Shown piece after piece: positions 3,063-18,276 of a stretch of 64,000 nucleotides of DNA. A program made the translations under genes and the position numbers. The notes under the pieces are model-generated. The model was not told the origin of the DNA. It saw only the letters and a list, made by a program, of their open reading frames with translations, and did not search any database. Numbering within the stretch: the first letter of the stretch is position 1; the number at the start of each line of letters is the position of its first letter. The DNA is from Alphaproteobacteria bacterium. Lineage in GTDB: Bacteria; Pseudomonadota; Alphaproteobacteria; Caulobacterales; Parvularculaceae. The stretch is taken from positions 1-64,000 of the forward strand of contig WGLS01000004.1 of the NCBI GenBank assembly GCA_016125455.1, read 5' to 3'.

Positions 3063-3185
3063 GGATTAGTCCTTTCCTTGCTTGCGTGGATGAGAACTCC
3101 CCCGATCCACGCAACTCATATGAAGGATTGCTCGGGTCAGATAATCAGGGCATTTTGAATTTTATACGTTCTTCAGGAGAAACAA
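3063..3185. promoter_or_regulatory. Divergent control region between doxX and lysR
   Basis: This 123-bp gap separates two divergent genes and must hold both promoters and, by the usual LysR layout, the regulator's binding site. It is AT-richer than the flanks (for example TTTTGAATTTTATACG near 3150-3165). No specific T-N11-A site can be singled out with confidence. Confidence 0.5.
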
Positions 3186-4509: not shown

Positions 4510-5223
4510 TCACTCTGTTGTCTCATCGCTAAAGGGCAGGGCGAGTAGCGAGTTTCCCCGTATGGTCGGGTCCTCTCGAACACAGCTCTTTTCTGGCCGG
4601 ATGTCTGCTTCCAGCCGACCTCGCAGACACCTCGCCCAGCTTGCCAAGCCCAGGACCTCACCGCGAAACTCGCGCAGACGATCCATGCTGGCCGCATATC
4701 GCGGTTTCAGTGCTGAACCATCCTCAGTATAAAAGTAGAGGGAGGCGACGCTCTCAAAGGGCAGGATTTCAGTCTCAACGAAGGTCACGTAGCGGACGTA
4801 TTTCTGGCCCACGCCTTCGAGTTCGGAATAATAATAGCTGAGGTCGAAGATGGTCACCGGATCGAACAGGCCTCCAATCTCCATCTGTTGCAGGACACCC
4901 CAGGTATCGGGGGCAGTATCAGCCCCTTCGATCCGGTAATAATAGGGGGCGGGATGCTCGCCTCTCTCAAAGGCCTCCGCCCATGCCGCAAGTCCCCGGT
5001 CGATCTCAAAAACCTGCTTGTCTTCCATCACGTAGATGGAGTCCGCGAGGTCAGTGGCAAGCGCCTGGATAATCTCGTCCCGCCTTTGCTCGGCTGTTCG
5101 CGCCTCGTTCCAGTTGCCGAGCTGGAGACCGAGGAACACACCGAGCACAACGATTAGGGTCTCGATCAGAACGGTGAACCAGTTCTGTTCCCGGACGGCG
5201 GCGGCGAGACGCTGGAGGATCAT
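4510..5223 (-). CDS. DUF6090-like membrane protein, array gene 12 (last, type A)
   Basis: A 237-residue protein, twelfth and last of the tandem paralogues in transcription order. It begins with the type A module (MILQRLAAAVREQNWFTV), a single membrane helix at about residues 17-37 and the motif QLGNWNEAR. The rest is mostly helical and predicted extracytoplasmic by the positive-inside rule. The usual mid-protein motif (SSG-x-L with LR-x-AL) is replaced by a diverged MEIGGLFDPVTIFDLSYYYSE. The C-terminus is unlike its sisters, with two Cys near residues 200 and 215 and no matching tail. Its start overlaps the stop of array gene 11 by ATGA. It is either specialised or the decaying end of the array. 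Function unknown. Confidence 0.8.
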   Translation of the reverse strand: MILQRLAAAVREQNWFTVLIETLIVVLGVFLGLQLGNWNEARTAEQRRDEIIQALATDLADSIYVMEDKQVFEIDRGLAAWAEAFERGEHPAPYYYRIEGADTAPDTWGVLQQMEIGGLFDPVTIFDLSYYYSELEGVGQKYVRYVTFVETEILPFESVASLYFYTEDGSALKPRYAASMDRLREFRGEVLGLASWARCLRGRLEADIRPEKSCVREDPTIRGNSLLALPFSDETTE

Positions 5224-5969
5224 AGGGCAGTCTCGCCTGTGATCTCGTCGCGGAGCGTAACGGCAATGGTGCGGAGGTCCTTCATGAGTTTGAGGTGACG
5301 GTTGGTGTAGATCCAGTAATTCCTCGCCGCTGCGAGCAGGGCCGGGTCCTCGGCAAAAAATGTGGCGAGTGCCTCGGGCGGCATTTCATCTATGGCCGAC
5401 AGACCTGCAGCCTGCTGGGAGGCGACAAGCGTCAGTCGGCTGTCCTTCATTTCGTCCTCGAAGTCGCGTGTGCTCTCGGCAATGGCGTAATAGCCCTGGA
5501 TACGGCGAAGGAGGGCCCTATCGCGCACGATTCCGGCGCCGCCTGTGTTGATCATGGTGTCATAGGTCAGCCTGTGGCCTTCAAGGGTCGTCAGGACAAA
5601 AAGGGCAAACCCGGCCGAGCCGGATACGGCGGGATCGAAAGGCTCGGAGGGCTCGATTTCGATGAGACCCCGAGCCGATGACACCACGTCTGGTAACGGA
5701 TTTCCTTCTGCTGTCTCCAGCAAGATCCCGAGCGCCGAAAGCCGGATGCCTGCGATCCGCGCGATCTCGTCGATCTCATCGATATCGTTTTCAAGGTCGG
5801 AGGCGATGCCTGCCAGATAGGCCTGTTCGAGGGTCCGGTTCTGACGCGCCTCGTTCCAGTTATTGACCTGCAGACCGATGAAAACGCCGAACACCACGAT
5901 CAGCGTCTCGATCACCACCGTGAACCAGTCCTGCTTGCGGATGGAGGTGGCGAGGCGTTGCAGGATCAT
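5220..5969 (-). CDS. DUF6090-like membrane protein, array gene 11 (type A)
   Basis: A 249-residue paralogue of the array. The N-terminal type A module (MILQRLATSIRKQDWFTV), the membrane helix and QVNNWNEAR are almost the same as in array genes 6 and 7. The body carries the family's central motif in the form INTGGAGIVRDRALLRRIQGYY. A patch of Glu/Asp with Ile heptads (LENDIDEIDEIARIAG) at residues 55-75 suggests a coiled coil just after the membrane. It is linked to both neighbours by ATGA overlaps, so it is expected to be translationally coupled. No enzyme motif is visible and the function is unknown. Confidence 0.8.
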   Translation of the reverse strand: MILQRLATSIRKQDWFTVVIETLIVVFGVFIGLQVNNWNEARQNRTLEQAYLAGIASDLENDIDEIDEIARIAGIRLSALGILLETAEGNPLPDVVSSARGLIEIEPSEPFDPAVSGSAGFALFVLTTLEGHRLTYDTMINTGGAGIVRDRALLRRIQGYYAIAESTRDFEDEMKDSRLTLVASQQAAGLSAIDEMPPEALATFFAEDPALLAAARNYWIYTNRHLKLMKDLRTIAVTLRDEITGETAL

Positions 5970-6694
5970 TTGGCGGCCTCCTTTTCATTCCTGATGAGCG
6001 TGAGGATTTCTTCGACATCCGCCTGCATGCCCGAATAGACAACATGTGCGTTATCGTGGGTCAGATAGGCGGTTTGTAATAGTGGCAGCAATGCCGGGTC
6101 GCTCAGGACCAGTTCTTCGTTAACAGACTTTGTTGCGCCAAGGCTGTCAAAACTATGCGAGGGCAGGCCCGTTGCCTCTAGTGTGCGGACCGCCATCAAC
6201 TTTTCGCCGAGCGCGGTCAGCGGCCGTTCGAATAATCTGAATTCCTGTCTGACCAGCGTGGCGTAATCGTCATATTCCGAGAGAGCACGGCGCAGCTCGA
6301 AATCTTTAATAAGATCGATGCGACCATCTGATTTCAGCTCCTGGAAGGTTGTGGATGGTCCTGGTGGCGTCCCTCCGCTCGCCGCCAGAGAAATATCGCT
6401 GGCAAGGCTTTCTTTCTCAAGCGCCTCATTCGAAATTCCGTGGATGAGCCGAGCGGTCGCCATAAGACTTGTTGCGTGCGCGGCCAGCGAGCGATCAGCA
6501 CGCGCATGGATTCTGGTGAAATCCTCCTCAAGTCGGTCGAGTATGAAAACCGCTTCGATCCTGTCCTTGCGCGCCGCATTCCACTCCTGCACCTGAAGGC
6601 CCATGAAAACGCCGACAACCACGATCAGAAAGTCCAGCGCCACGGCGAACCAGTTCTGGTCTTTCACATGTTGGGACAGCCGGCGGAGGATCAT
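5966..6694 (-). CDS. DUF6090-like membrane protein, array gene 10 (type B)
   Basis: A 242-residue paralogue. The start is placed at the ATGATCCT at 6694, not at an upstream ATG, because every array gene begins this way and the extra 21 upstream residues are the antisense-like tail of the neighbour. It has the type B module (MILRRLSQHVKDQNWFAV), then a membrane helix and QVQEWNAAR, a variant of the usual NWNE. The central motif reads FQELKSDGRIDLIKDFELRRALSEYD. The predicted topology is a short basic cytoplasmic start, one helix and a large helical outer domain. Function unknown. Confidence 0.8.
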   Translation of the reverse strand: MILRRLSQHVKDQNWFAVALDFLIVVVGVFMGLQVQEWNAARKDRIEAVFILDRLEEDFTRIHARADRSLAAHATSLMATARLIHGISNEALEKESLASDISLAASGGTPPGPSTTFQELKSDGRIDLIKDFELRRALSEYDDYATLVRQEFRLFERPLTALGEKLMAVRTLEATGLPSHSFDSLGATKSVNEELVLSDPALLPLLQTAYLTHDNAHVVYSGMQADVEEILTLIRNEKEAAK

Positions 6695-7431
6695 GGGGCA
6701 GTCTCGCCCAGCTGGTGCTGGATCGCAGTGATTCGATCGCGGATGCGTGTTCGCCACATCGTGTAAAGGCTGTGTACAAATACAAGCTGCTCGGCCGCAT
6801 TCATGAATTCCTCATCACTGGCCATGGCGTTAAAATCATACGCGCCAATGGCGGGGCTTTCGGCGTCCAGCTGGAGTAGGTCCGAGAAAAAAGGAGCACC
6901 GATATCGTATTGAAACGCTGCGGAAAAAGGTGCCTGCACACCAAATGCCATGTCCACAAAGTATTGCTGCGCGACGGCAAAGCGTTCCAGGAAATCTTCA
7001 TATGCGACGAGTTCGTTCAGCAGTTCCTTGTCACTCAGCAGGTTTGCCCGGCCGGATGACAAAAGCTCGGTGAACGTACCTGAGTGGTCGGCGCTGGTCT
7101 GAAAGGCCTGACCGAGAAAAAGCGCGCGCTCAAATGCAGGCACGTCCGACTCCGGCAGCTCGCCCGCCCGAAGGGCGCGCACCATTGCCTTAAGATCTGA
7201 CGCGATGGATTCGTGGTACATGAGGCTGCGCTGCGCGTCGTCTTCGATGCGATCAAAGTCGACACGAATTCTATCGACGATCCTCGTTTCCTCGGCTCGT
7301 TCCTGTCGAACCTCATTCCAGTTTGCGACCTGGATGGCGAGCAACACACCAATCACCACGATCACAAAGTCGAGCCCGACGGCGAACCAATTCTGGTCTT
7401 TAACATGCTGGGAGATGCGGCGGAGGATCAT
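6691..7431 (-). CDS. DUF6090-like membrane protein, array gene 9 (type B)
   Basis: A 246-residue paralogue with the type B start (MILRRISQHVKDQNWFAV), a membrane helix at residues 18-38 and QVANWNEVR. The central motif is well preserved as FTELLSSGRANLLSDKELLNELVAYE. It is one of two adjacent type B genes (with gene 10) placed inside a run of type A genes, so the array order is not a simple recent tandem duplication of one type. ATGA overlaps join it to genes 8 and 10. No catalytic residues can be named and the function is unknown. Confidence 0.8.
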   Translation of the reverse strand: MILRRISQHVKDQNWFAVGLDFVIVVIGVLLAIQVANWNEVRQERAEETRIVDRIRVDFDRIEDDAQRSLMYHESIASDLKAMVRALRAGELPESDVPAFERALFLGQAFQTSADHSGTFTELLSSGRANLLSDKELLNELVAYEDFLERFAVAQQYFVDMAFGVQAPFSAAFQYDIGAPFFSDLLQLDAESPAIGAYDFNAMASDEEFMNAAEQLVFVHSLYTMWRTRIRDRITAIQHQLGETAP

Positions 7432-8174
7432 GGCGATGTCCCCTCTGCATGCGTAATGTCGAGATGCTCGTCGAGCACCCGATGAAGCTCTGTGAGGCTG
7501 GCCGTCACCCGTGCATTATCGGCGACATGAAGTCCGAAATTGGTCTTGGCAAATTCGAAATCGTTCAGAAATTCGGGGTCGGTCTTCATGCCTTCCAGGT
7601 CACAACGAAACGTCGCCGTCGTCGGACGCTCTGCAACCACAGCAGGCGTAACAACCTGAATGAGGTCTGGATATTTTGAAGTCAGGACTTCGTCATTGCC
7701 GGAAATTCCGGCCTGGGAGTCACGTGCGCGCGACCGCGTCAGCAGGAACGCCTGCACCGCTTCAGAGACTTCTTTGTTCCGGAACAGGGAAAGTTGACCG
7801 GAAGATTGAAGCTCGATGAGGGCGGCCAGTTCATCAGTAGGATTTGACACCAGATATGTGTAGCCGACGCTCCCACATTCTTCGGTCGTGATCGCGCGGT
7901 CTTCCACACCAAACAGGACAGGCGCCAAGGAAATGAGCAGATCATTGAACATCTCTCGGTCCTGCGTCGTGGGACGGCGTGTTTGCAGGAGACGAACGAC
8001 GTCGTCATGCAGGCGACTTGTATATGACGCTTCAAGCTGGCGACGCCCTTGCTCCTGTGCCCACTGCTGGACCTGCAGACCCAGAAAGACACCCAGCACG
8101 ACGATCAGGGTTTCCACCGCGACAGTGAACCAGTCCTGCTTGCGGATGGAGGTGGCTAGGCGCTGGAGGATCAT
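7428..8174 (-). CDS. DUF6090-like membrane protein, array gene 8 (type A, motif variant)
   Basis: A 248-residue paralogue with the type A start (MILQRLATSIRKQDWFTV) and a membrane helix. The otherwise strongly conserved NWNE/NWND after the helix is replaced by QQWAQEQ. The central motif LIELQSSGQLSLFRNKEVSEAVQAF is intact. Two Cys occur (TEECGSVGY near residue 104 and TFRCDLEG near residue 200). A single Gln-rich loop around the variant motif makes it the best natural test of whether NWNE is needed. It is coupled to its neighbours by ATGA overlaps. Function unknown. Confidence 0.8.
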   Translation of the reverse strand: MILQRLATSIRKQDWFTVAVETLIVVLGVFLGLQVQQWAQEQGRRQLEASYTSRLHDDVVRLLQTRRPTTQDREMFNDLLISLAPVLFGVEDRAITTEECGSVGYTYLVSNPTDELAALIELQSSGQLSLFRNKEVSEAVQAFLLTRSRARDSQAGISGNDEVLTSKYPDLIQVVTPAVVAERPTTATFRCDLEGMKTDPEFLNDFEFAKTNFGLHVADNARVTASLTELHRVLDEHLDITHAEGTSP

Positions 8175-8920
8175 TGAGTTTTCTCCTCAGCGATCAGGCG
8201 CTCGATGTCTTCCGCCAGCCGCAATTGCTCCCGCGCGAGCGTTGATTGATTGATTTGTGAGCCCTGGAGAATGTTCAGCGCCGTCAAAATCTCGGGGTCG
8301 TTGAGGTATCGGTCTCGATCGAAGCTAATAATGTTCGAGCGGTCGTTTTCGAGAATGAAGGCATCATAGTCTTCCGGTGCATCCATATCGACAAGCGCAA
8401 ATAGAGTGTTCGTTGCATCATGCTGTTGCTCTCTGATCGTTCTCCACGCATCGCGGCCAATCACGGCAAACTCATCATAGGCAAACAAGGCCTGGCGCAG
8501 TTCGTCATTGCGCAAGATCTCAAGTGCGCCGCTTGACACCATTTCCTTGAACGCCGCTGGTGAGCCTGCCGGAACTCTGCCAGCAGTCATGTTGAGCACC
8601 GCATAAGCAAGCGTTTCATCATTCGGTAGGTCGGCATCAGGCGAGGCACGGTGCAGGCGAATGTTGTCAAGGAGAAGGTCCAGGCCGCGCGCCGACTGCG
8701 TGAACACGTCGACGCCGCCAGCCAGACGGTCGCGAATGACATCCATCTCGGAATCGAGCCGCTCAATGTAGCGCGCTTCACGAAGCCGGTCCTGCCGCGC
8801 CTCGTTCCAGTTGCCGAGCTGGATACCGAGAAACACGCCGAGCACCACGATCAGTGTCTCGATGAGGACGGTGAACCAGTCCTGTTTGCGGATGGCGGTG
8901 GAGAGACGCTGGAGGATCAT
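8171..8920 (-). CDS. DUF6090-like membrane protein, array gene 7 (type A)
   Basis: A 249-residue paralogue with the type A start (MILQRLSTAIRKQDWFTV), membrane helix and QLGNWNEAR. It matches the family pattern closely in the middle (FKEMVSSGALEILRNDELRQALFAYDEF), the part most like the Bacteroidota proteins grouped as DUF6090. The tail (LNILQGSQINQSTLAREQLRLAEDIERLIAEE) looks like a regular amphipathic helix. It is linked by ATGA overlaps to both sides. Its conserved middle makes it a good representative for profile searches. Function unknown. Confidence 0.82.
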   Translation of the reverse strand: MILQRLSTAIRKQDWFTVLIETLIVVLGVFLGIQLGNWNEARQDRLREARYIERLDSEMDVIRDRLAGGVDVFTQSARGLDLLLDNIRLHRASPDADLPNDETLAYAVLNMTAGRVPAGSPAAFKEMVSSGALEILRNDELRQALFAYDEFAVIGRDAWRTIREQQHDATNTLFALVDMDAPEDYDAFILENDRSNIISFDRDRYLNDPEILTALNILQGSQINQSTLAREQLRLAEDIERLIAEEKTQ

Positions 8921-9648
8921 GGGGCCAGTTCGTTCCCGATCATGGCCAGAAGCGCGCGCTGGGCATCTGCCACTTCGATCACCTGTTTGTTCGTGCCATT
9001 TGTATAGTAGCGGGCGGCGGACAGGGCTTTGCGAAATCGAAGATCCGAGCAGACGAATTTCTGGTCGAAACCAATATCGCCCCAGACGATGTCTACGTCT
9101 CCTTGCCTTGCGCCGGACAGCTTGTATTCGATCTGGCTTTCGACGTAGACCACGTGAGGATTTCCGCGTGCTAGCGTCGTTCGGAAAACCAGGTCAGCAG
9201 AATCGACAGCTTCTGTCATTGCGGTCACGGCATCGCGAATATCAGAATTGCTGATGAACTGGAATTTTCCTGTCGCATTCAATTCATTGATCACCCCGCG
9301 CACCAGTGCCGGCGGCAAGGATTTGCCCACGTGAAAAAAGGCATTTGCGACAGTGTCGCGATCCTCGATCGGGAACTCGCACCGTGAAAGGCGCTCAAGC
9401 GCCACGGTGATATTCCTGTCCTGACGATCCATGAACGCGATGCGCTGTTCATTCTGCTCGATGGACACGGAGATGTCCTCGGCGAGGCGCTCCAGATAGC
9501 CACGTTCGTCGATACGATTCTGACGCGCCTCGTTCCAGTTGTTGACCTGCAAACCGATGAACACACCGAAGACCACGATCAGCGTCTCGATCGCGACCGT
9601 GAACCAGTCCTGCTTGCGCAGTGCGGTGGTGAGACGGCGGAGGATCAT
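8917..9648 (-). CDS. DUF6090-like membrane protein, array gene 6 (type A/B boundary)
   Basis: A 243-residue paralogue. Its first residues mix the two subtypes: MILRRL as in type B, then TTALRKQDWFTV and ETLIVVFGVFIGLQ as in type A. That is what a crossover within the conserved start would give at the boundary between the upstream type B run and the downstream type A run. The central motif is weaker (INELNATGKFQFISNSDIRDAV). Cys occur at LSRCEFP and KFVCSDLRF. It is coupled by ATGA overlaps. Function unknown. Confidence 0.8.
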   Translation of the reverse strand: MILRRLTTALRKQDWFTVAIETLIVVFGVFIGLQVNNWNEARQNRIDERGYLERLAEDISVSIEQNEQRIAFMDRQDRNITVALERLSRCEFPIEDRDTVANAFFHVGKSLPPALVRGVINELNATGKFQFISNSDIRDAVTAMTEAVDSADLVFRTTLARGNPHVVYVESQIEYKLSGARQGDVDIVWGDIGFDQKFVCSDLRFRKALSAARYYTNGTNKQVIEVADAQRALLAMIGNELAP

Positions 9649-10406
9649 CGGGCTAGGGCCTCGTCGATGGCCGCTTGGGCGGCGTCAGAGTACCCAAGCG
9701 CGTCCGGCAACAGGACTTGCGCGACGACATTCTGGCCGATCCAGTATCTCAACTGATTTGCCAGGTCAGGCGAAGCGCGCATGTCTTCCAGCATTGCAGA
9801 CGTATCCATCGCCCGCAGCTCGTCGACGCAATCGCGCACCAGCTCCTCGAACACGTCATCGGGATACCGTATGCAATCGCGCCACAGCGCCTCGCTCACG
9901 TCGGGCGAGAAGTAACCGCGCACGGATTCCCGATAGGCCGGCGGCGACAGGTTCACGAAATTCCAGCCGTCGAGAAAACGGTACAGGTCCAGCAGCGTCT
10001 TGCGCCTTTCGGCATCACGCGGCAGCCCGAGCCGTTCCATTTCCTCGAATATCGTCAGGGTGCGCGGCGCGCCCCAAACCTGGCTGGCGTGGAAGAAGTC
10101 GACCAGCAGGTCGGCGCAGTCGTCGTCGCATGCCCGATCGCTTTCGAGATAGGCGAGTGCGCGTTTTCCGGTTTCCACGACGATATCGACGTAAACGATC
10201 TGATATTCCGTCACCCGCCGGTTCTGGGCGACCTCATCCTTTAGCTGGAGGAGATAATTGCGCTCAAGCCGATCAAGGGCGCGCGCATCGTTCCAGTTCG
10301 AAATCTGCAGACCGATGAACACGCCGAGCACCACGATCAGGAAATCCAGCGCGACGGCGACCCAGTTCTGGTCTTTTACATGCTGGGTGAGACGGCGCAG
10401 GATCAT
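9645..10406 (-). CDS. DUF6090-like membrane protein, array gene 5 (type B, Cys-rich)
   Basis: At 253 residues this is the longest array member. It has the type B start (MILRRLTQHVKDQNWVAV), a membrane helix and QISNWNDAR. The body is diverged: the central motif is only FEEMERLGLPRDAERRKTLLDLYRFLD. It contains four Cys, in DRACDDDCADLL and in RDCIRYP and VRDCVDE. Two disulfides are possible if the domain is extracytoplasmic, as the topology suggests. It is the last of the first type B run and overlaps its neighbours by ATGA. Function unknown. Confidence 0.8.
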   Translation of the reverse strand: MILRRLTQHVKDQNWVAVALDFLIVVLGVFIGLQISNWNDARALDRLERNYLLQLKDEVAQNRRVTEYQIVYVDIVVETGKRALAYLESDRACDDDCADLLVDFFHASQVWGAPRTLTIFEEMERLGLPRDAERRKTLLDLYRFLDGWNFVNLSPPAYRESVRGYFSPDVSEALWRDCIRYPDDVFEELVRDCVDELRAMDTSAMLEDMRASPDLANQLRYWIGQNVVAQVLLPDALGYSDAAQAAIDEALAR

Positions 10407-11125
10407 GGAGCCTCCCCGTCGCTGAGAAGAGACAGCACCGTTTCGGCCTGCTCCCGATGGATCACGAGCCAGTTGACGAGGTCGCGTCCATAGAAGATTT
10501 CCGCATTCGCGGCCCGTTCGAAAGCAGGCGCGGCCCGCATTGCCTCAACCCCAGCCATAATTTTCGCGACGGTTTCATCGCTGACATCAGTCAGATTTTC
10601 TACCGGGATGTCGCCGGGAATGTATTCCGCGAACAGGCGACGATAATCGCCGATCGGCTCTGCAAGAATGTCGACGGTGCGCCCATACTGGGAATAGTAG
10701 TCGGAAACGGCGTTGCGCAATTCAATGTTGGTCAGCAGCGTCAGCTTCCCCGACCCGATCAGCTCATCATAGGTCGCCCGGCGCGGCCCGGGCAGAGCCT
10801 TCCAGACCGTATATTCAAGACGCTGAGCCGCGTCCCTGCGATCGCCATCGAGGAGGTCTTCGATGGGGCCGTCACGCAACTTCACAAGCAGCTCTTGCTT
10901 GACCGTATAGAGGGCGATCATCTCATCCGTTCTGCGAATGTCATCCTGAAGATCGTCTGCAAGCCGCTGGCGATAAGTGGCTTCCTCAGCTCGATTGGCG
11001 ATGGCCTCGTTCCAATTGGTGATCTGGAACGCGATCAGGATACCGGCAACGACAATCAGGAAATCCAGCGCGACGGCGAACCAGTTCTGGTCCTTCACGT
11101 GCCTGGAGAGGCGTCGGAGGATCAT
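10403..11125 (-). CDS. DUF6090-like membrane protein, array gene 4 (type B)
   Basis: A 240-residue paralogue with the type B start (MILRRLSRHVKDQNWFAV). Its membrane helix is of the AGILIAFQ form, shared only with array gene 1, followed by QITNWNEA. The central motif is clear: YDELIGSGKLTLLTNIELRNAVSDYYSQY, close to the DUF6090 pattern. The similarity of its helix to gene 1, three genes away, hints at exchange between non-neighbouring copies. It is coupled by ATGA overlaps. Function unknown. Confidence 0.82.
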   Translation of the reverse strand: MILRRLSRHVKDQNWFAVALDFLIVVAGILIAFQITNWNEAIANRAEEATYRQRLADDLQDDIRRTDEMIALYTVKQELLVKLRDGPIEDLLDGDRRDAAQRLEYTVWKALPGPRRATYDELIGSGKLTLLTNIELRNAVSDYYSQYGRTVDILAEPIGDYRRLFAEYIPGDIPVENLTDVSDETVAKIMAGVEAMRAAPAFERAANAEIFYGRDLVNWLVIHREQAETVLSLLSDGEAP

Positions 11126-11862
11126 TGGGCGTACCCTTCTGCTTCAAGACGGGCGACGACTATTTCCGTTGCGGCATCAAGGGCATTCAAGAAATCGAGC
11201 GCGGCTGCTGTGATGCCGAGCCGAAGAACCAGAATATTGTCCAGCTGCCGGTTCGCCTGGATCATCTCCTGCGTATTCCTGAATGGGGACGGCGCGATGA
11301 ACGTCTCTGTCCATGCGTAGTGCTCGCCCATGGCACCAAATGCCAACTCCTCCATTGCGAATGGCACGAAAGCGAGATTGCGCTGTTCAAGCGCATCGAC
11401 TTCCAGTCGCCGATAGCTGGCGAGCGCCTGCTCCCAGGAGGCGAGGGGCTCGCGCAGGTTCAGGGACTCCAGCCGCCGCAGAGCGCCCCCCGCAACGAGT
11501 TCATCGAAAGTCGTCTGCTCTGCCGTGAAGACGAGGATGCTGAAGGAATTTATCAACATCCGGTCGACTTCTCTCATGTCGTCTGGCGGCGAGCCACCCG
11601 CTATGATCTGTCGGAGCGTAGCGATATCCGCCATTTGAGACTGAAGACGATCACGGTAGCCGTCAAAGCGCGAAAGGTTCTCAGTGAATTCGCCATGAAG
11701 GCTGCCGAGTTGTTCTCTCAGCTCGACATTCCGCGCCCGCGCCTCATTCCAGTTTGCGAGCTGGATGGCGATGAGCACACCCGCCACCACGATGAGGAAA
11801 TCAAGGACGACGGCGAACCAGTTCTGGTCCTTCACATGCTGGGAGAGACGGCGGAGGATCAT
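11122..11862 (-). CDS. DUF6090-like membrane protein, array gene 3 (type B)
   Basis: A 246-residue paralogue with the type B start (MILRRLSQHVKDQNWFAV), a membrane helix with AGVLIAIQ, then QLANWNEAR. The segment after the helix (VELREQLGSLHGEFTENLSRFDGYRDRLQSQ) has the spacing of a coiled coil, so oligomerisation is plausible. The central motif appears as FDELVAGGALRRLESLNLREPLASWE. There are no Cys and no enzyme motif. It is coupled by ATGA overlaps to genes 2 and 4. Function unknown. Confidence 0.8.
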   Translation of the reverse strand: MILRRLSQHVKDQNWFAVVLDFLIVVAGVLIAIQLANWNEARARNVELREQLGSLHGEFTENLSRFDGYRDRLQSQMADIATLRQIIAGGSPPDDMREVDRMLINSFSILVFTAEQTTFDELVAGGALRRLESLNLREPLASWEQALASYRRLEVDALEQRNLAFVPFAMEELAFGAMGEHYAWTETFIAPSPFRNTQEMIQANRQLDNILVLRLGITAAALDFLNALDAATEIVVARLEAEGYAQ

Positions 11863-12602
11863 CGGCCAGTCTCCGCTTCGATCAAGGCGAGAATGTCCCG
11901 GATGCTGTCGCGCTGAAGACGGCGTTGCGCCAGCGAGTTGTAGGCATTGGTTTCAAGGAGTTCGATCGCGACTTCCGCATAGGGGTCGCGGCGCATGCCG
12001 GCGACGTCGACGCTCAGCAACTCCTTTCGAATGCCGGACAGCGCGCTGTCATCGAACACGACTTGTGCCGAGAAATAGCGCTGAAGGACGGGAAATTGCC
12101 GGATATGGGTGTCGATCGACATTCGGGATATGTCGCGCATGATGTCCAGCGCGCGGTCATAGGCGGCGAGCCGGTCACGCAGATCCGAATTGCGCAGCGC
12201 GCTCAGCTGTCCTCCCGACAGCATTTCAAGATAGGTCGCCGATGTCTGCGGCGGCACTCTTTGCTGTGACAGCGCGTTCAGGGCGCGCGAGACCTGCGCC
12301 ACATCGACGGTGGCGTCGGCGAAGTCCTCATCGCTCATGCGCAGCAGAGGGAGCAGGTATGCCGCCCCCGCGATCATCTCGTCATAGACGACGAAATGCT
12401 CGCTCAACCGCTCGTCAATGCTGGCAAAATCGGCCTGCATCCGCTCGAGATAGACATGCTGCTGCTGGGCCTGCAGCCGCGCATCATTCCAGTTGCCAAG
12501 CTGAATGCCCACGAACACGCCCAGCACCACGATGATGAAATCGAGCGCCACGGCGAACCAGTTCTGGTCCTTCACGTGCTGGGTAACGCGGCGGAGGATC
12601 AT
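11859..12602 (-). CDS. DUF6090-like membrane protein, array gene 2 (type B)
   Basis: A 247-residue paralogue with the type B start (MILRRVTQHVKDQNWFAV), a membrane helix and QLGNWNDAR. The post-membrane segment is Gln-rich (QAQQQHVYLERMQADFASIDERLSEHF) and probably helical. The central motif is well kept: YLEMLSGGQLSALRNSDLRDRLAAYDRALDIM. It lies second in the array and overlaps genes 1 and 3 by ATGA. No partner or substrate can be read from the sequence. Function unknown. Confidence 0.8.
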   Translation of the reverse strand: MILRRVTQHVKDQNWFAVALDFIIVVLGVFVGIQLGNWNDARLQAQQQHVYLERMQADFASIDERLSEHFVVYDEMIAGAAYLLPLLRMSDEDFADATVDVAQVSRALNALSQQRVPPQTSATYLEMLSGGQLSALRNSDLRDRLAAYDRALDIMRDISRMSIDTHIRQFPVLQRYFSAQVVFDDSALSGIRKELLSVDVAGMRRDPYAEVAIELLETNAYNSLAQRRLQRDSIRDILALIEAETGR

Positions 12603-13339
12603 TGGCGCGCCTCCATTTCAGCACTTATCGCATTGCGCAAGCTTTCGGCGCGCGTCTCGATCCGGCTCATATTGACGTATTGCCACTGGCTGATGAAGGC
12701 GGCCATCTTCACGTAACCGAGAAATTCCGGGTCAGTGCGGGCGCGCTCGACGACGGCGCCAAAATCAGTCCGGTCGCCCAGCCCCAATCCGTTGTAGCGT
12801 AAATATCCGAGCATCGGCTGGATCTGCGAAAAGACGATGTCGTCCTCAGTCGCGTACTGTTCCAGCTGGTTGTAAAACTCGGTGAGGTCGCTGACGAGCC
12901 GCCGGTTGCGTATCACGCCGATCCTGCCCGTCTGGATCAACTCTTCAAATGTGCTGTCAGCAGCAACCAGGTAGACCGAGGTTGTCAATCCAGCATAGGG
13001 ATAGGGGACGAAGCCGGGATCGACGCGCGCCTCCTGGGAAATCTCGGGCCAGAATCGCGGGCGCTCATATTCCGGGTCGATCGCGGCCAAAATGCTTTCT
13101 GCGAGTGCCAAGCGCCCGAGAGTCGAGACCTTATTCTCCTGAACACGCGTAACATTCACCTCGAGGTCGCGGACGAGTTCAGCAAGATAGCGTTGCTCGT
13201 CGCGGCGGTCCTGCCGCGTCTCATTCCAGCCGGTGATCTGGAACGCAATCAGGATGCCCGCGACAACGATCAGGAAATCGAGCGCCACGGCAATCCAGTT
13301 CTGGTCCTTCACGTGCTTGGAGAGACGGCGGAGGATCAT
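12599..13339 (-). CDS. DUF6090-like membrane protein, array gene 1 (first, type B)
   Basis: A 246-residue paralogue, first of the twelve in transcription order. The start is set at the ATGATCCT at 13339, although an in-frame start lies 33 bp upstream, because the ATGA overlaps the stop of the SnoaL-like lipoprotein exactly as in the other junctions. It has the type B module (MILRRLSKHVKDQNWIAV), a helix of the AGILIAFQ form and QITGWNETR. The central motif is FEELIQTGRIGVIRNRRLVSDLTEFYNQLEQY. The overlap ties the array to the upstream MFS/DUF418/lipoprotein/cupin genes. Function unknown. Confidence 0.8.
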   Translation of the reverse strand: MILRRLSKHVKDQNWIAVALDFLIVVAGILIAFQITGWNETRQDRRDEQRYLAELVRDLEVNVTRVQENKVSTLGRLALAESILAAIDPEYERPRFWPEISQEARVDPGFVPYPYAGLTTSVYLVAADSTFEELIQTGRIGVIRNRRLVSDLTEFYNQLEQYATEDDIVFSQIQPMLGYLRYNGLGLGDRTDFGAVVERARTDPEFLGYVKMAAFISQWQYVNMSRIETRAESLRNAISAEMEARQ

Positions 13340-13848
13340 TGCAAACTGGGCGGCGTTTCCGCGAACGGACAATCGGGCAGCAATGCCCCGCCGACGGGAA
13401 GATCGGAATTGAAGATATCGGCTTCTATCAGCCAGTCACCATCGGGCTGACGGCGACGCACTTCGAGGAATTTGCCAAGGTCCACGCCGTACCCGCCGGC
13501 ACCGTCAGGTATGAAAACGCAAGAGCGCCCCCGCACATAGGCGAGATCTCCGCTGCCTTCGATTGCAGCAAGCTCAAACGCAATACGGAAACCTGCCTCA
13601 TACTCGTTCTCCCATGCGGCGATCGCATCCCGGCCTGTTACGGCTGAGCCATTGGGCGGCATCATCACCGCATCCGGCGTGAAAAGCATCGCCAGCGCCT
13701 CCCAATCATTGCGACTATAGGTCTCGACCCACTCTGCTAAGGCGGCCTCGATCGTGACACGGTTATCAGGCGAAAGTTCGGGCACGTGAGGCTGACAGGC
13801 TGTCAGGGCTGCAATGAACAGGACAGCGGCAAAGTTATGGGGTTTCAC
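13336..13848 (-). CDS. SnoaL/DUF4440-like lipoprotein
   Basis: A 170-residue protein with a short signal peptide ending in the lipobox LTAC (Cys18), so a lipid-anchored envelope protein is expected. The mature part is an NTF2-fold domain of the SnoaL/DUF4440 type: a helix (VTIEAALAEWVETYSRNDWEAL), then FTPDAVMMPPNGSAVTGRDAI and a C-terminal sheet (DGDWLIEADIFNSDLP). The GTG start overlaps the stop of the cupin gene (GTGA), and the stop overlaps array gene 1. The domain usually binds small molecules or acts as an oligomer partner. Its job here is unknown, but it is the gene directly coupled to the array. Confidence 0.8.
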   Translation of the reverse strand: MKPHNFAAVLFIAALTACQPHVPELSPDNRVTIEAALAEWVETYSRNDWEALAMLFTPDAVMMPPNGSAVTGRDAIAAWENEYEAGFRIAFELAAIEGSGDLAYVRGRSCVFIPDGAGGYGVDLGKFLEVRRRQPDGDWLIEADIFNSDLPVGGALLPDCPFAETPPSLQ

Positions 13849-14795
13849 TGTTCTTCTCCGGATGTCTCGGCATTGATCCAGTCCTGCCTGCGCGGGGCGA
13901 AGAACTCGATCACGATGCTGTCTTCGGTGAAGGTGTAGGCGTGAGGCGCGTTGGGCGGCAGGACGAGCATGTCCCCCGCGGCCAGCGAGACGCGCTGGTC
14001 GCCCGACACAACTTCAGCGGCTCCAGAGAGAAGGAGTGTGACCTGCTCATTGTAATGGCTGTGCATGGGCACCACGCCGCCCGCAGCAATTTCCCAGCGC
14101 GAAAAAGTGCTTTCAACGCCCGTCACGTATTGGCGGATGATGCCCGCCGCGACGGGCTCGCGCGGCAGATCAGTAAGGGTGAACTTCGACGCTTTGTCAC
14201 CCAGATCAGCTATATCTCTAGGGGTGATGCCGGTCCGTAACCCCTCATAATAGGTCACCAGAAAGTTTTCATCGACGTTTTGGACAATCGGGTCTGCCAT
14301 AAGATAAAGCTCAGACCCCTGCCAGCCGATTGCATTTTCACGCCACCAGTTCTTGGCGAGCGCAAAACCGAAATAGAAGGGCGCATTGTTTTGGATATGA
14401 AGCCTCACCCGGCGGTCATCAACCAGACCGCCGTCGCGCATCGTCATCAGATGCTCCCAGGTCATAACCCCAGCGACCATAATACCATCGAATGTGCGCA
14501 GCTCGGACGGTGTCAGGTCTTCAGGTGTGTAGACCGCCTTCATCCAGACCTCTGCCATATCCGGATTGGCAATGTGTTGTTCATAGCGGGCCTGAGCGGC
14601 AGCGCGTTCCGCTTCGAGACCGATCCGGCTAAGCGCCGCGTTCTGGCGGACCTCAAAAATCAGGACGATCAGGCCTAGCAGCACGCCGAGATTGGCCGCC
14701 AATGTCAGCCAGCGATTGAAGCGCTCGGAGGCCCAGCGAACGGGTTGCGGAGCCGGATTCCCATCGGGTGACTTTGAGGCGTTCGTGTCGATCAT
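13845..14795 (-). CDS. Membrane-anchored helical protein with C-terminal cupin
   Basis: A 316-residue protein of two parts. Residues about 22-45 are a membrane helix (LTLAANLGVLLGLIVLIFEV) followed by EVRQNAAL and a helical region to about residue 215; this layout recalls the array proteins but has no NWNE motif. Residues 225-310 are a cupin-2 barrel with candidate metal ligands HSHYNEQ and a later PPNAPHAYTF. The ATG at 14795 is chosen because a GGAG site precedes it and it begins just after the previous stop. Cupins bind small ligands or metals, so this could be a membrane sensor or enzyme for the compound handled by the operon. That is inference. Confidence 0.75.
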   Translation of the reverse strand: MIDTNASKSPDGNPAPQPVRWASERFNRWLTLAANLGVLLGLIVLIFEVRQNAALSRIGLEAERAAAQARYEQHIANPDMAEVWMKAVYTPEDLTPSELRTFDGIMVAGVMTWEHLMTMRDGGLVDDRRVRLHIQNNAPFYFGFALAKNWWRENAIGWQGSELYLMADPIVQNVDENFLVTYYEGLRTGITPRDIADLGDKASKFTLTDLPREPVAAGIIRQYVTGVESTFSRWEIAAGGVVPMHSHYNEQVTLLLSGAAEVVSGDQRVSLAAGDMLVLPPNAPHAYTFTEDSIVIEFFAPRRQDWINAETSGEEQ

Positions 14796-14817
14796 CTCGG
14801 CCAAACTCCAATTGCGC

Positions 14818-15657
14818 TCAATTCGAGACATCCCGCGCGATGTGCCAGACGCCATCGACTTTCCGCCAGAGGAGCGAGGCATACCCGCCAAACATGAGCG
14901 CACCATCGGCATCTAACACTTCGTAGCGCTGCAACTCGACAAACGCGTCCGGCGCGAGCCATTGGATGTCTACGACCTCGAGCACGCCGTCAGCTGCAGG
15001 GCTGTTCACGACAGCCTCCCAATATGCGGCCAGCTCGTTTGGCGTCGTGAACAGCGTATCGCCATCCGGCGAATAGACCGCATTGCTGGTGAAGAGCTTC
15101 AGCACCTCATTTGTGTCGTTGGTCTCGATTGCACGGAGGATCGTATCTGTGCGAGCTTGCAGCACGGCGGAGACATCTTCGTCGCCGACCATCGCTGCGG
15201 TGTGCGTCTCTGTGTCTGTATATTGCTGGAACGCGGTGATCTGGCCGCCCGGCACCGTGTAGGCATGCACGAAGGGCACATCCATTTCTGAGCCGGTGGC
15301 CTTGTAGGTGCCTGTGTAGCGCCCGAAGACAATGACGCGGTCATCCTCAACAACATATTCGGAGGGCGTCGCCGTGAACGCGTCCCATTCGGTGGCAAGC
15401 CGGACGAACAGGCCGTTCACGATCGCTTCGGGACCCTGATAGGGGTTCAGGTCTGAGTAGGGGTTTCCTTCAGCCTCCAGCCAGACGATTTCAGGCGACA
15501 TCCGACTGGTCGCCAAGGCGATGTCACCGGCGGCAAAACCCTCATAAACCGTTTCGACAGCAGGCTTTGCCAGGGCGGCTTCGTCTATTTGCGGAGCAAC
15601 CGTCGCACAGCCGGCCAGTAGAATGCTGCTAACCAAGCCTGACTTGCATATACGCAT
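14818..15657 (-). CDS. Lipoprotein with two NTF2/SnoaL-like domains
   Basis: A 279-residue lipoprotein with signal peptide and lipobox LAGC (Cys17). Two NTF2-fold domains follow, at about residues 28-150 (YEGFAAGDIALATSRMSPEIVWLEAEG) and 155-279 (ILRAIETNDTNEVLKLFTSNAVYSPDG), each with the helix-then-sheet pattern of the SnoaL/DUF4440 group. The start at 15657 is favoured over the longer frame by a good AGGAG site and the signal peptide. It sits 11 bp after the DUF418 gene and 22 bp before the cupin gene, so co-transcription is very likely. The ligand is unknown. Confidence 0.82.
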   Translation of the reverse strand: MRICKSGLVSSILLAGCATVAPQIDEAALAKPAVETVYEGFAAGDIALATSRMSPEIVWLEAEGNPYSDLNPYQGPEAIVNGLFVRLATEWDAFTATPSEYVVEDDRVIVFGRYTGTYKATGSEMDVPFVHAYTVPGGQITAFQQYTDTETHTAAMVGDEDVSAVLQARTDTILRAIETNDTNEVLKLFTSNAVYSPDGDTLFTTPNELAAYWEAVVNSPAADGVLEVVDIQWLAPDAFVELQRYEVLDADGALMFGGYASLLWRKVDGVWHIARDVSN

Positions 15658-15668
15658 GGCGGTCTCCT

Positions 15669-16931
15669 TTACGTTTTGATGGGTTGCGGAATTCGGCGCA
15701 TTGAGGGGAGCGTGCCGTAGGTCAGTGCGCGCCAGAGCCATTCTAGCGGGCCGAAAGCGAAGGCCTTCATCCAGACATGGCTGAAGACGATCTGTGCAGT
15801 GAAGAAAGCAATGACGAGGGGCAGGAAGGTCGAGATGCCCGCCTTGCCGGCGAGGCCCAGTCCAGGACCGACAGAGGTCAGGATCAGGATGATGGCCACG
15901 CTCTGCGAGACGTAATTGGTAAGGGCCATCTGGCCGACAGGCGCCAGGGGTTTGACCAGCCAGGCAACGGTTTTGCCATGAAAGATAAGGACCAGCGCAC
16001 AGACATATCCGGCTGCGATCAATGGTGTGGCAACCGCGTGGGCTGTGACCGCCAGCATTCCGAAAGCCAGGCCGTCAACCATGTCCTCGGTCAGCAGATG
16101 CGCCAGTTCAAGCAAGAACCCTGCGATGAGGCAGGGCCAGAGCCAGCGGCGAAACAGGGAGAGGTTCGTCGATGCGTTCTGAATCCAGCCCTTCCGCGCG
16201 ACCCATGCCCCCATGAAAAACCGGCCGAGCGCGTAGAAAACCCAGGCAACAAATCCGCCGGTGAGAAGCCATCCGAAGATGGTGTTCCTGGCCATAAGAG
16301 ACAGAAATGCCGGAAAGTCGCCCGACTGGGCTGCGGTCTGTTGGGCCAGAACGGTGGCGTCGGAACTGAATGCCTCCTCCAACTGGCCTGAAATACCGGC
16401 CACTTCGAAACCGTAATTGATCACAGGCTTTGCAAACAGAAGCAGCACAATACCGATCCAGAGCAGGGCGCGATCGGGAAACTTGCGGCAGAAGAAGAGG
16501 ATGAACGCAGCCGTGCCGTAAACGTGGAGAATGTCCCAGGCAAATAACCCGAACACATGAAGCCAGCCAAATAAGAGAAGGATGAAGGCGCGCCTCAGGT
16601 ACACGGCCTTGAACGGCGTGCCGCGGGCTTCAAGGCGCTCCATCTGGACCCAGAACCCCAGCCCGAACAGGAATGCGAACAGCGTATTGGCCTTGTCCGC
16701 GACGAAGAGTCGAACCCAGAAGGTGATCGTTTCGTTCAGGGAAGCGGATGGCAGCGCTGCAAGCTGGTCTGACGTGATCAGAATATCCTCGCCGCCAAAC
16801 TCGTAGATGTTGATCAGCATCACGCCGAACAGCGCGAAGCCGCGCAGCACGTCCATGACGGCGTAGCGTTCGCCCTTGGCCGTCGGTACTGCGGCGTCCC
16901 CCAACATGCGTGCGTCCCCCGACCCAGCCAT
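15669..16931 (-). CDS. DUF418 multi-pass membrane protein
   Basis: A 420-residue inner-membrane protein with about ten hydrophobic segments. The N-terminal signature RYAVMDVLRGFALFGVMLINIYEF and a C-terminal half with APVGQMALTNYVSQS and GPLEWLWRALTYG identify the DUF418 family, related to membrane acyltransferase-like proteins and often annotated YeiB-like. The start at 16931 is one base after the TGA of the MFS gene (TGACATG), which implies translational coupling. No substrate is established for the family. In this operon it could be an envelope-modifying or transport component. Confidence 0.88.
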   Translation of the reverse strand: MAGSGDARMLGDAAVPTAKGERYAVMDVLRGFALFGVMLINIYEFGGEDILITSDQLAALPSASLNETITFWVRLFVADKANTLFAFLFGLGFWVQMERLEARGTPFKAVYLRRAFILLLFGWLHVFGLFAWDILHVYGTAAFILFFCRKFPDRALLWIGIVLLLFAKPVINYGFEVAGISGQLEEAFSSDATVLAQQTAAQSGDFPAFLSLMARNTIFGWLLTGGFVAWVFYALGRFFMGAWVARKGWIQNASTNLSLFRRWLWPCLIAGFLLELAHLLTEDMVDGLAFGMLAVTAHAVATPLIAAGYVCALVLIFHGKTVAWLVKPLAPVGQMALTNYVSQSVAIILILTSVGPGLGLAGKAGISTFLPLVIAFFTAQIVFSHVWMKAFAFGPLEWLWRALTYGTLPSMRRIPQPIKT

Positions 16932-16932
16932 G

Positions 16933-18276
16933 TCAGTTTGTCTTGCTCTGCGGCGCATTCACCAGCCGCTCGTCACCGAACCGGCCGAGCAGGAAGAAGA
17001 CAATGCTGACCAGCGAGATTGCAGCGACGTAGAAGTAAGCACCGTCGTAGCCAAATTCCTCAACCACGAGGCCCGACCATCCGGACATTGCAGACCGGCC
17101 AAAATTCGGCACGGCCATGAACATTGCAAACAGACTGGCTGCGACAGCCGGATCGCAAATCCGCATGGCCCAAACGATAGAGACGACTTGAATGGTTGTT
17201 GCGAAGAACAGTTGGGCACTAAAAATGACCTTGAAAGTGGTGGTGTCCTGCCAGCTCGTATAGCTCAGACCGGCAAAAGCTGCGCACGCGATGAGCGCCA
17301 GCGTGACGCAGACCATCGACCAGCGCAGCCCGATCGTTTTTACCAGCACCGGGGCGGTCAGTGCGCCCGCGACGCCCAGGATAAATCCGCTCATGCTCGC
17401 AAAGTTGCTGTAGCCATCGCTGCTCCAGCCCAATTGCTGAACCGCCAGAGTGGGCGATACCGCGTCGGTAAATGCGTAGGTGGCTTGTGAAAGGGCGGAA
17501 GCAAGAAGAAAGAAAAGTGTCGCAGGCACAAATAGGCCGCGGGAAATGCCCTTGAAAATCGGCCACCAGGCTTCCTGTTGCCGCGCTTCGCACTCCGGCG
17601 AGGCCTGTCCAACACTCCACGGCATCAGACACTCGCCGGGGCGTTCTCGAAACAGCGCGACAAAAACCGAAACACCGACCACGAGTGCTGCAAGCAAAAG
17701 GCCCACCAGAGCAATCTGACCGGAGGCCAGAAACCGGCCGGCAACCGCGCCGGCGACGGCGATGCCCAGCCATTGCGCGGAGAACATGAAGCCATTGATC
17801 GTGGTACGCTCCTCGTGAGGGACGAGATCGACTGTCATTCCGTCCGTAGCCACATCGTTCAGCACGGCGCAGACGTTCAACAGGAAGCAAAGCGCCATCA
17901 GCAGACTGACCTCGTCGGCGGAGGGAGCCGCGACAGCAAAGGCTACAAGAGTTGTCGCCATCAGGATCTGCGCGATCATGATCCAGGCACGGCGCCGGCC
18001 CATGGGCCGGAACGTGAACCGATCCATCAGTAGCCCGCCAAAGAGTTTGAGGGACCAGGGCAACACCGCGATGCCAACAAAGGTGCCAACCGTGACAGGA
18101 GTTGCCCCATTGGCTGCGAGCCAGGCCGGTATTGCGATCAAGGCAAGACCAACGGGTACACCCTGCGTGAAATAGAGGAGTATGATCGCAGCAAAGCGCG
18201 CCTGCTTGCTTTCAGTCAGCGAAGGCCAGGCCCCCGCAGGAGTTGGCTCAGCGGGTAGGGAAAAACTGGATGGCAT
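16933..18276 (-). CDS. MFS transporter, AmpG/PAT-like
   Basis: A 447-residue major facilitator with twelve predicted membrane helices. The N-terminal part (LYFTQGVPVGLALIAIPAWLAANGATPVTVGTFVG) and the loop DRFTFRPMGRRRAWIM resemble the AmpG/peptide-acetyl-CoA transporter group. Members import muropeptides or related solutes, but the substrate cannot be predicted. It is the first gene of the long minus-strand operon, with a GGGGG ribosome site and about 200 bp of non-coding sequence upstream containing CGTCAA direct repeats. Downstream it is coupled to the DUF418 gene. Confidence 0.85.
   Translation of the reverse strand: MPSSFSLPAEPTPAGAWPSLTESKQARFAAIILLYFTQGVPVGLALIAIPAWLAANGATPVTVGTFVGIAVLPWSLKLFGGLLMDRFTFRPMGRRRAWIMIAQILMATTLVAFAVAAPSADEVSLLMALCFLLNVCAVLNDVATDGMTVDLVPHEERTTINGFMFSAQWLGIAVAGAVAGRFLASGQIALVGLLLAALVVGVSVFVALFRERPGECLMPWSVGQASPECEARQQEAWWPIFKGISRGLFVPATLFFLLASALSQATYAFTDAVSPTLAVQQLGWSSDGYSNFASMSGFILGVAGALTAPVLVKTIGLRWSMVCVTLALIACAAFAGLSYTSWQDTTTFKVIFSAQLFFATTIQVVSIVWAMRICDPAVAASLFAMFMAVPNFGRSAMSGWSGLVVEEFGYDGAYFYVAAISLVSIVFFLLGRFGDERLVNAPQSKTN

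What the first reader, a model, noticed from the sequence alone, without database searches (positions are those of the whole stretch)
4510..13339. Twelve tandem DUF6090-like membrane proteins in one operon
Seen: twelve consecutive genes of 237-253 codons, all minus strand, each with a near-constant N-terminus, one membrane helix, an NWNE-type motif and a diverged helical body that keeps a loose SSG-x-L / LR-x-AL centre. Known: DUF6090 proteins, mostly from Bacteroidota, share this layout but have no established function. Inference: a conserved anchor with twelve variable outer domains suggests a set of receptors, binders or hetero-oligomer subunits with diversified specificity. This is the strongest candidate here for an undescribed system.
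Basis: partly seen in the sequence, partly recalled or inferred. Interest (0 to 1): 0.88.

Follow-up and report, generated by a model that had tools for sequence, protein, structure and literature searches.

The report
Shuffling gene cassettes for periplasmic proteins
Twelve back-to-back genes in a bacterium encode membrane-anchored proteins that share one starting piece but have very different outer parts, and comparison with relatives suggests that such genes move between arrays one at a time, like swappable cassettes, for a purpose still unknown.

Summary
In detail: twelve minus-strand genes (237-253 aa) at 4510-13339, all 11 junctions overlapping by 4 nt (ATGA). They are divergent DUF6090-like proteins (4 of 12 pass the Pfam cut-off). 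Two models (pLDDT about 93) show an amphipathic helix, one transmembrane helix running into a stalk, and a helical bundle; charge and even cysteine counts (353 of 371) suggest a periplasmic body. The anchor is homogenised within arrays while bodies match other genomes. Relatives with body identity of 40% or more keep a related upstream neighbour in 11 of 212 cases, a downstream one in 7 of 187. In 11 of 15 hand-chosen pairs upstream homology ends at the start codon. Body dN/dS is 0.08-0.33 (37 pairs), so the predicted positive selection is absent; diversity comes from reshuffling and gain or loss of conserved body types, some apparently horizontal. Copy number is 0-29 in 41 genomes. Best reading: an integrase-free gene-cassette array with its shared 5' coding module as recombination homology (about 0.8); function perhaps a protective periplasmic repertoire against phage or toxins (about 0.35, untested).

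The parts
12599..13339 (-). gene 12, DUF6090-like, 246 aa, first of the array
   Evidence: PF19578 24.6 bits; overlaps 13336-13848 by 4 nt
11859..12602 (-). gene 11, DUF6090-like, 247 aa
11122..11862 (-). gene 10, DUF6090-like, 246 aa
10403..11125 (-). gene 9, DUF6090-like, 240 aa
   Evidence: PF19578 E 1.2e-9, 38.7 bits, residues 23-147
9645..10406 (-). gene 8, DUF6090-like, 253 aa; body relative 86.6% in L082 (record titled Henriciella sp.)
   Evidence: model pLDDT 93.8; C178 and C193 invariant in an alignment of 58
8917..9648 (-). gene 7, DUF6090-like, 243 aa
   Evidence: 23.6 bits
8171..8920 (-). gene 6, DUF6090-like, 249 aa; body relative 83.9% in L082
7428..8174 (-). gene 5, DUF6090-like, 248 aa
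6691..7431 (-). gene 4, DUF6090-like, 246 aa
   Evidence: model pLDDT 92.6
5966..6694 (-). gene 3, DUF6090-like, 242 aa (start corrected)
5220..5969 (-). gene 2, DUF6090-like, 249 aa
   Evidence: PF19578 31.2 bits
4510..5223 (-). gene 1, DUF6090-like, 237 aa, last gene, no clear SSG core
13214..13339 (-). example of the conserved 5' module (first 126 nt, here of gene 12; one begins every gene of the array)
   Evidence: pairwise nt identity of the 12 modules 0.56-0.88; homogenised within arrays
13336..13848 (-). DUF4440/SnoaL-like probable lipoprotein, coupled to gene 12 by a 4-nt overlap
   Evidence: LTAC lipobox read from the sequence
13845..14912 (-). 'VRQN' single-TM helical protein (my label) fused to a cupin; overlaps the SnoaL gene by 4 nt; recurring partner of arrays; true start possibly inside
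14818..15741 (-). double SnoaL/DUF4440 probable lipoprotein (true start probably inside)
15669..16958 (-). DUF418 membrane protein, probably same operon
   Evidence: a relative (51%) lies in the same 16-kb stretch as the G012 array (L055)
16933..18276 (-). MFS transporter, probable upstream end of the operon

Best explanation
This is an operonic gene-cassette array. Each cassette is one gene: a conserved 5' coding module (start codon, amphipathic helix, transmembrane helix) plus one of many divergent, individually conserved periplasmic helix-bundle bodies. Shown by sequence comparison: related bodies mostly sit singly among unrelated neighbours, bodies are under purifying selection, and the 5' module tends to match the resident array rather than the body's relatives. 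Inferred: homologous recombination or gene conversion in the shared 5' modules inserts, removes or swaps whole genes without breaking frame or translational coupling, because each stop codon overlaps the next start (ATGA); no dedicated recombinase is needed. Inferred and untested: the proteins form a repertoire of inner-membrane-anchored periplasmic binders exported by one common anchor, each body matching one external agent (a phage's injection machinery or a periplasm-acting toxin), kept or lost as the threats change. Confidence is about 0.8 for the cassette-array layer and about 0.35 for the protective function; the number given is for the two together, weighted.
For: Anchors cluster by genome, bodies do not: best N-terminal hit in the same genome 73 of 107, best body hit 35 of 103. 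Cross-genome body relatives: the own array has the more similar first 20 residues in 502 of 638 pairs (30-40% body identity), then 140/187, 87/103, 18/29, 16/24 and 2/8 in rising identity bins (pairs share genes, so not independent). Codon identity at same-residue sites of the anchor: within arrays 0.604 (0.401 expected from codon usage), other arrays of the genome 0.551 (0.382), other genomes 0.460 (0.359); within-array value above expectation in 49 of 51 arrays. Relatives with body identity >= 40% share a related upstream neighbour in 11 of 212 and downstream in 7 of 187; random pairs 2.4%. Upstream nucleotide identity averages 33-44% directly before the start codon in 11 of 15 hand-chosen pairs while the CDS stays high. 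Gene gaps are mostly -4 nt (213) or -1 nt (51) (duplicate loci included). Body dN/dS 0.08-0.33 (37 pairs). Body dS at most half of rpoB dS in 9 of 22 pairs, e.g. window vs L082 0.46 and 0.50 against 1.47. The family 5' end precedes an unrelated secreted protein in L041:5462-6343, and weakly in L092:7314-8180 and L070:7987-9240. Export: cysteine number even in 353 of 371; net charge higher before the TM than after in 358 of 371. Toxin-antitoxin genes sit in or beside some arrays.
Against: At the highest body identity (85-100%) the relative's N-terminus is usually the closer one (own array wins 2 of 8), so recent relatives mostly keep their anchor. Collinearity rises with identity: at >= 80% the upstream neighbours are relatives in 3 of 8 and downstream in 1 of 7. 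Of the 15 pairs two are collinear and two have intermediate upstream identity; one of the 15 lies within one genome. Some synonymous similarity of the anchor also exists between genomes. In 11 of 22 rpoB comparisons the body is not less diverged than rpoB. Several horizontal cases rest on small contigs of metagenome-assembled genomes that may be mis-binned. The G012 array shares VRQN and DUF418 relatives with the window, so neighbourhoods are not wholly random. For the protective function there is no direct evidence: 0 of 12 proteins match PADLOC at E <= 1, one window body finds nothing in phages or plasmids, and the viral-contig scan confirmed no relative.
Confidence: 0.5

Rival explanations
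1. Receptors or sensors: each body is a periplasmic four-helix-bundle ligand-binding domain that reports to a shared membrane partner through the common transmembrane helix.
For: Weak similarity to chemoreceptor ligand domains (MCP2201: Z 8.2, rmsd 3.0, 121 aligned for gene 8; Z 7.9, rmsd 3.0, 122 aligned for gene 4). D21, G28, Q34, W38 in or next to the TM are highly conserved. The gene-8 lineage has conserved R159 and R163 and two invariant cysteines.
Against: No output domain or second TM was seen in the window's 12 ORFs or the two models. Z under about 13 is common for helical bundles, and de novo designs score higher here. No single conserved TM face at 100 degrees per residue (permutation p 0.53). 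No partner gene at every array.
Confidence: 0.17
2. Hetero-oligomer subunits: the twelve assemble through the common anchor into a mixed periplasmic structure, and copy number tunes its composition.
For: Co-directional, translationally coupled genes with the same anchor and long stalk.
Against: Copy number 0-29 and mostly unconserved composition and order do not fit a defined complex; several genomes have a single match.
Confidence: 0.12
3. Accessory parts of a periplasmic stress or detoxification operon: the anchored bundles scaffold exported proteins such as SnoaL, cupin, peptidase and hydrolase proteins.
For: SnoaL/DUF4440 and cupin genes and the VRQN family recur beside or inside arrays; non-family cargo looks exported in 21 of 45 versus 95 of 381 control genes (Fisher p 0.004, crude in-house rule).
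Against: No one enzyme is present at all arrays examined. Five of the 21 'exported' calls are VRQN proteins with a TM helix, so the enrichment is overstated.
Confidence: 0.13
4. Mostly neutral expansion: a selfish or drifting tandem family kept similar at its 5' ends by gene conversion, with little function for individual copies.
For: Copy number swings, contig ends inside arrays, truncated members and module-only short ORFs (L099).
Against: Body dN/dS 0.08-0.33 and even cysteine counts indicate selected proteins.
Confidence: 0.08

Closest known systems
DUF6090 (Pfam PF19578)
   Same: N-terminal TM followed by an NWNE-like motif and the SSG/LR core; proteins over the cut-off (38-40 bits) with a different anchor lie beside these genes in L108 (record titled Marinicella) and L126 (titled Proteobacteria bacterium).
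   Different: 4 of 12 window proteins pass the cut-off; this group has a distinct Q-N-W anchor. No paper of the held library contains 'DUF6090'.
Integron gene-cassette arrays (superintegrons)
   Same: Operon-like arrays of single-gene units, shuffled, variable in length, with toxin-antitoxin cassettes (resemblance recalled; abstract beginnings in the listing).
   Different: No integron integrase over the cut-off in this genome, no room for attC sites where genes overlap, and the presumed recombination homology is coding DNA of one family.
Neisseria tpsA/tpsC cassettes
   Same: Recombination in related sequence; the authors propose that its main goal is collecting new ORFs for protection (PMC3848433, abstract and outline read).
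   Different: There shorter cassettes recombine with one toxin gene; here every unit is a complete coupled gene and no such toxin gene was noticed.
Chemoreceptor four-helix-bundle ligand domains
   Same: Periplasmic helical bundle following a TM helix.
   Different: No second TM, no signalling domain; fold match not above the level common for helical bundles.

Membership tests
DUF6090 (PF19578) | Score over the gathering cut-off (23.5 bits) | tested here: inconclusive
   4 of 12 over it (genes 2, 7, 9, 12), 2 more at E <= 0.001; in a wider set 26 of 70 at E <= 0.001
DUF6090 (PF19578) | N-terminal TM with N-W-N motif, then the SSG/LR core (layout partly recalled) | tested here: met
   W38 in 12 of 12, N39 in at least 90%; gene 1 lacks a clear SSG core
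Integron cassette array | IntI integrase | tested here: not met
   TIGR02249 not over cut-off in the genome (best 20.7 of 265 bits); assembly 96% complete
Integron cassette array | attC site after each gene | tested here: not met
   all 11 window junctions overlap by 4 nt; no attC search was run
Integron cassette array | Single genes occurring as independent, reshuffled units (a 'works like' feature) | tested here: met
   with the collinear exceptions named there
Chemoreceptor / sensor kinase | Second TM and cytoplasmic signalling domain | tested here: not met
   ORFs end after the bundle (models); no TM predictor was run
Chemoreceptor / sensor kinase | Four-helix-bundle ligand-binding fold | tested here: inconclusive
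   Z 8.2 and 7.9 to MCP2201, below the level that is informative for helical bundles
Known anti-phage defence system | Match to a PADLOC model | tested here: not met
   0 of 12 at E <= 1; concerns only systems described by 2023
Periplasm-facing single-pass membrane protein | N-in topology and disulphide-compatible cysteines | tested here: met
   charge rule 358 of 371; even cysteine number 353 of 371; no experiment
Interbacterial immunity or phage exclusion protein | Protects against a cognate agent | not testable with these tools
   needs challenge assays

The most novel reading that the evidence does not exclude
An integrase-free gene-capture platform: the conserved 5' coding module of one membrane-protein family serves at once as recombination site, translational coupler and export signal, so that single genes, including unrelated secreted ones, can be inserted in frame into an operon and exchanged between species, together forming a protective periplasmic repertoire.
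Probability: 0.3. Interest if true: 0.88.

Novelty: new variant of a known kind. Interest (0 to 1): 0.62.

Why it matters
If right, bacteria can run a gene-cassette array by homologous recombination alone, using protein-coding homology that also secures expression and export. It would also give a testable handle on a widespread family of unknown function: each body is a separate conserved solution to something that varies from strain to strain.

Tried and rejected
Positive selection in the body: rejected at whole-body scale (37 pairs); site models were not run. Synteny of the window locus in relatives: DNA of 13340-21100 matches only in scattered pieces, in 10 of 41 genomes including the own one; in two G002 (same genus) stretches tested, only the gene at 18973-21048 has a relative, and G012's array stretch holds relatives of the VRQN and DUF418 genes. 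Homology of the VRQN partner to this family: profile comparison probability 0.4, no support. PDB by sequence: one match, E 0.4. Foldseek best E 0.13 and 0.048, long coiled-coil-like chains; best VIA-align Z 11.1 and 10.8, designed bundles; no fold assigned. PHROGs: 1 of 18 members weakly like an Rz spanin (E 0.0033), judged a coiled-coil effect. NCBIfam: no match better than E 0.03. A conserved face on the TM helix: not seen at 100 degrees (p 0.53; the moment was larger at 110 degrees, not tested). Rfam on L099 and L106: none. Integron: no integrase over the cut-off. Papers: DUF6090 0 papers; others (12 of 83 listed; 2 of 3; 8 of 601) showed, in the titles and abstract beginnings listed, no account of this system, apart from the analogue PMC3848433, whose abstract and outline I read; other papers were seen only as listings.

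Limits: one search picked a wrong reading frame for rpoB of G051; one search repeats it with the frame corrected and is the one cited (22 pairs, 16 genome pairs). One search lists 38 pairs, one without a computable ratio; pairs share genes and one lies within a genome. The 15 pairs were chosen by hand from the high-identity list (16 named, one not in the set). Loci L060-L134 are the best 75 of 307 relatives found, not a random sample. In one search at most 9 candidates were scored per genome, so its counts are lower bounds. One search's pair test (244 own array, 115 relative, of 359) contained wrong starts and is replaced. The gene finder and the export rule are in-house and crude; one search's cargo list also holds a few truncated family members. 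Counts include duplicate loci, removed.
Full report
Observation. The twelve genes are there at the stated coordinates, with two starts corrected. Lengths are 237-253 aa and each of the 11 junctions overlaps by 4 nt, the TGA stop of one gene lying in the ATGA start of the next. Thirteen alignment columns are invariant, all within residues 1-38; full-length identity to gene 1 is 19-29%. Pfam DUF6090 passes its cut-off in 4 of 12. The operon probably continues upstream through a SnoaL lipoprotein, a VRQN-cupin protein, a double SnoaL, DUF418 and an MFS transporter to 18276 (inferred from strand and overlaps).

Copies elsewhere. The genome carries 30 matches at E <= 0.01: the 12 of the window, 12 on contig C25, 4 on C34 (at a contig end), and single ones on C20 and farther along C33. 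In 41 genomes (the own one included) 24 have matches at E <= 0.001, from 1 to 29 per genome, and 17 have none; within one genus group the counts were 2, 3, 1 and 28. In a sample of 289 genomes of the class 5 match, a lower bound because at most 9 candidates per genome were scored. A scan of genome contigs returned 75 loci, from the best 80 of 307, in records titled Parvularculaceae, Marinicaulis, Henriciella, Robiginitomaculum, Maricaulis and others, and in gammaproteobacteria such as Marinicella, Paraglaciecola and Wenzhouxiangella. The viral-contig scan confirmed no relative; tblastn of one body, gene 8, finds none in phages or plasmids.

Structure and place. AlphaFold models of gene 8 (pLDDT 93.8) and gene 4 (92.6) agree: helix 2-11, a kink, one helix of about 74 residues (15-88/89) that is TM plus stalk, shorter helices, and a long C-terminal helix (213-252; 207-243). 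PDB comparison gives only helical-bundle-level similarity. In 371 family proteins the net charge is higher before the TM than after it in 358, and the cysteine number is even (0, 2, 4) in 353, as expected for an exported, disulphide-forming body. In the gene-8 alignment of 58 two cysteines are invariant.

Cassette behaviour. (a) Arrays have their own anchor spelling, readable by eye: the window and the C25 array of the same genome differ. Best N-terminal match is in the same genome in 73 of 107, best body match in 35 of 103. For cross-genome body relatives the own-array N-terminus is more similar in 502/638, 140/187, 87/103, 18/29, 16/24 and 2/8 pairs by rising body identity; the last bin goes the other way, as expected if the newest relatives have not yet been converted, but it is also simply against the claim for recent cases. 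(b) Silent sites follow: codon identity 0.604 within arrays, 0.551 in other arrays of the genome, 0.460 between genomes, against codon-usage expectations 0.401, 0.382, 0.359, so more than shared protein constraint is probably at work. (c) Order is mostly not conserved: among body relatives at 40% or more, related upstream neighbours in 11 of 212 and downstream in 7 of 187, against 2.4% for random pairs; at 80% or more 3 of 8 and 1 of 7. (d) Edges are close to gene-exact: of 15 hand-chosen pairs, mean upstream identity is 33-44% in 11 (one of them next to a contig end, one within a genome), intermediate (54-59%) in 2 and high in 2 that are collinear; downstream, homology runs for about 30-180 nt, the reach of the next gene's 5' module, then drops in 13 of 15. 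(e) Clear anchor swaps on related bodies include L057:7611-8393 vs L058:7294-8097 (body aa 0.79, first 22 aa 0.36) and L069:3864-4628 vs L095:10729-11493 (0.86 vs 0.50). (f) The 5' end also heads unrelated secreted proteins: two with an HExxH motif read by eye (L041, L092; Pfam peptidase matches below cut-off) and a beta-propeller-like one with a lipobox (L070). L041 is the firmest (N-terminal E 6.7e-4; nucleotide identity 0.80 to a C25 array gene, median 0.58); L092 and L070 rest on weak scores (0.0077, 0.42) and identities of about 0.6.

Selection and transfer. Among 38 pairs with body identity of 74% or more, the 37 computable dN/dS values are 0.08-0.33. Against rpoB, in 22 pairs from 16 genome pairs the body is less diverged at silent sites in 11 and has at most half the dS in 9, e.g. 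window vs L082 0.46 and 0.50 against rpoB 1.47, and G006 vs G021 0.21 against 1.93; in the other 11 it is as diverged or more. G006's gene is on a 3.8-kb contig and may be mis-binned; window vs L082 is firmer, because L082 shares 94-96% bodies with a one-contig genome (G037).

Neighbours. Inside or coupled to arrays recur a VRQN single-TM family (25 examples aligned; no Pfam family found for the helical part), sometimes fused to cupin or SnoaL-type domains, SnoaL_2 and DUF4440 matches (7 of 27 other partners each), cupins, M20 peptidases, and toxin-antitoxin genes: CcdB in L110 and L122, ParD in L061 and L095, a PIN domain in L067 (the CcdA partners are named by eye, and the second L061 gene had no Pfam match). 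Non-family cargo looks exported in 21 of 45 against 95 of 381 controls (crude; 5 of the 21 are VRQN proteins).

Mechanism. Shown: array structure, homogenised anchors, mostly independent single-gene units, purifying selection, sequence signs of export. Inferred: recombination between 5' modules as the agent, horizontal spread. Speculative: protection against phage or periplasm-acting toxins; it fits strain-variable, apparently mobile, individually conserved periplasmic bodies, and resembles what the authors of PMC3848433 propose for Neisseria immunity ORFs (abstract), but nothing here tests it.

Novelty. DUF6090 appears in no paper of the held library, and the entries listed by three further searches show nothing like this system apart from that analogue. 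Tandem paralogues, gene conversion and cassette arrays are known kinds; the combination, with coding homology as the presumed exchange site, is a new variant.

Noticed in passing
L099:2188-2421, 6776-7009, 7779-7991, 7943-8224: Short ORFs consist of the family's first ~17 codons followed by related, apparently non-family sequence ending near a palindromic-looking repeat; the 53-nt module occurs 8 times in 10 kb. No Rfam match.
   Followed up: partly
L110:16905-17479; L122:9374-9976; L061:7189-7865; L095:11654-11938; L067:9221-9994: Toxin-antitoxin genes (CcdB with CcdA-like, ParD, PIN) sit in or beside arrays, as recalled for superintegrons.
   Followed up: partly
L108:10836-11651; L126:2011-2826 and 2830-3603: DUF6090 proteins of another anchor type (38-40 bits) lie next to the Q-N-W type.
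   Followed up: partly
window 13845-14912 and 24 further proteins of alignment A3: VRQN single-TM helical family without a Pfam model, modular with cupin and SnoaL-type domains, recurs beside arrays.
   Followed up: partly
L052:10392-17783; L056:1-1683; L107:8122-9993: Membrane proteins starting (E)LRRRNVFRVA or similar lie beside arrays, four in tandem in G032; the window gene 18973-21048 clustered with those of L052 and L056.
   Followed up: no
window 26734-63310: Genes that read as a bacteriochlorophyll/photosynthesis cluster follow the array region.
   Followed up: no
G000:C34 end, G021:C57, C58 and C89, G006:C50: Contigs end at or near arrays, so copy numbers in draft genomes are probably underestimates.
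   Followed up: no
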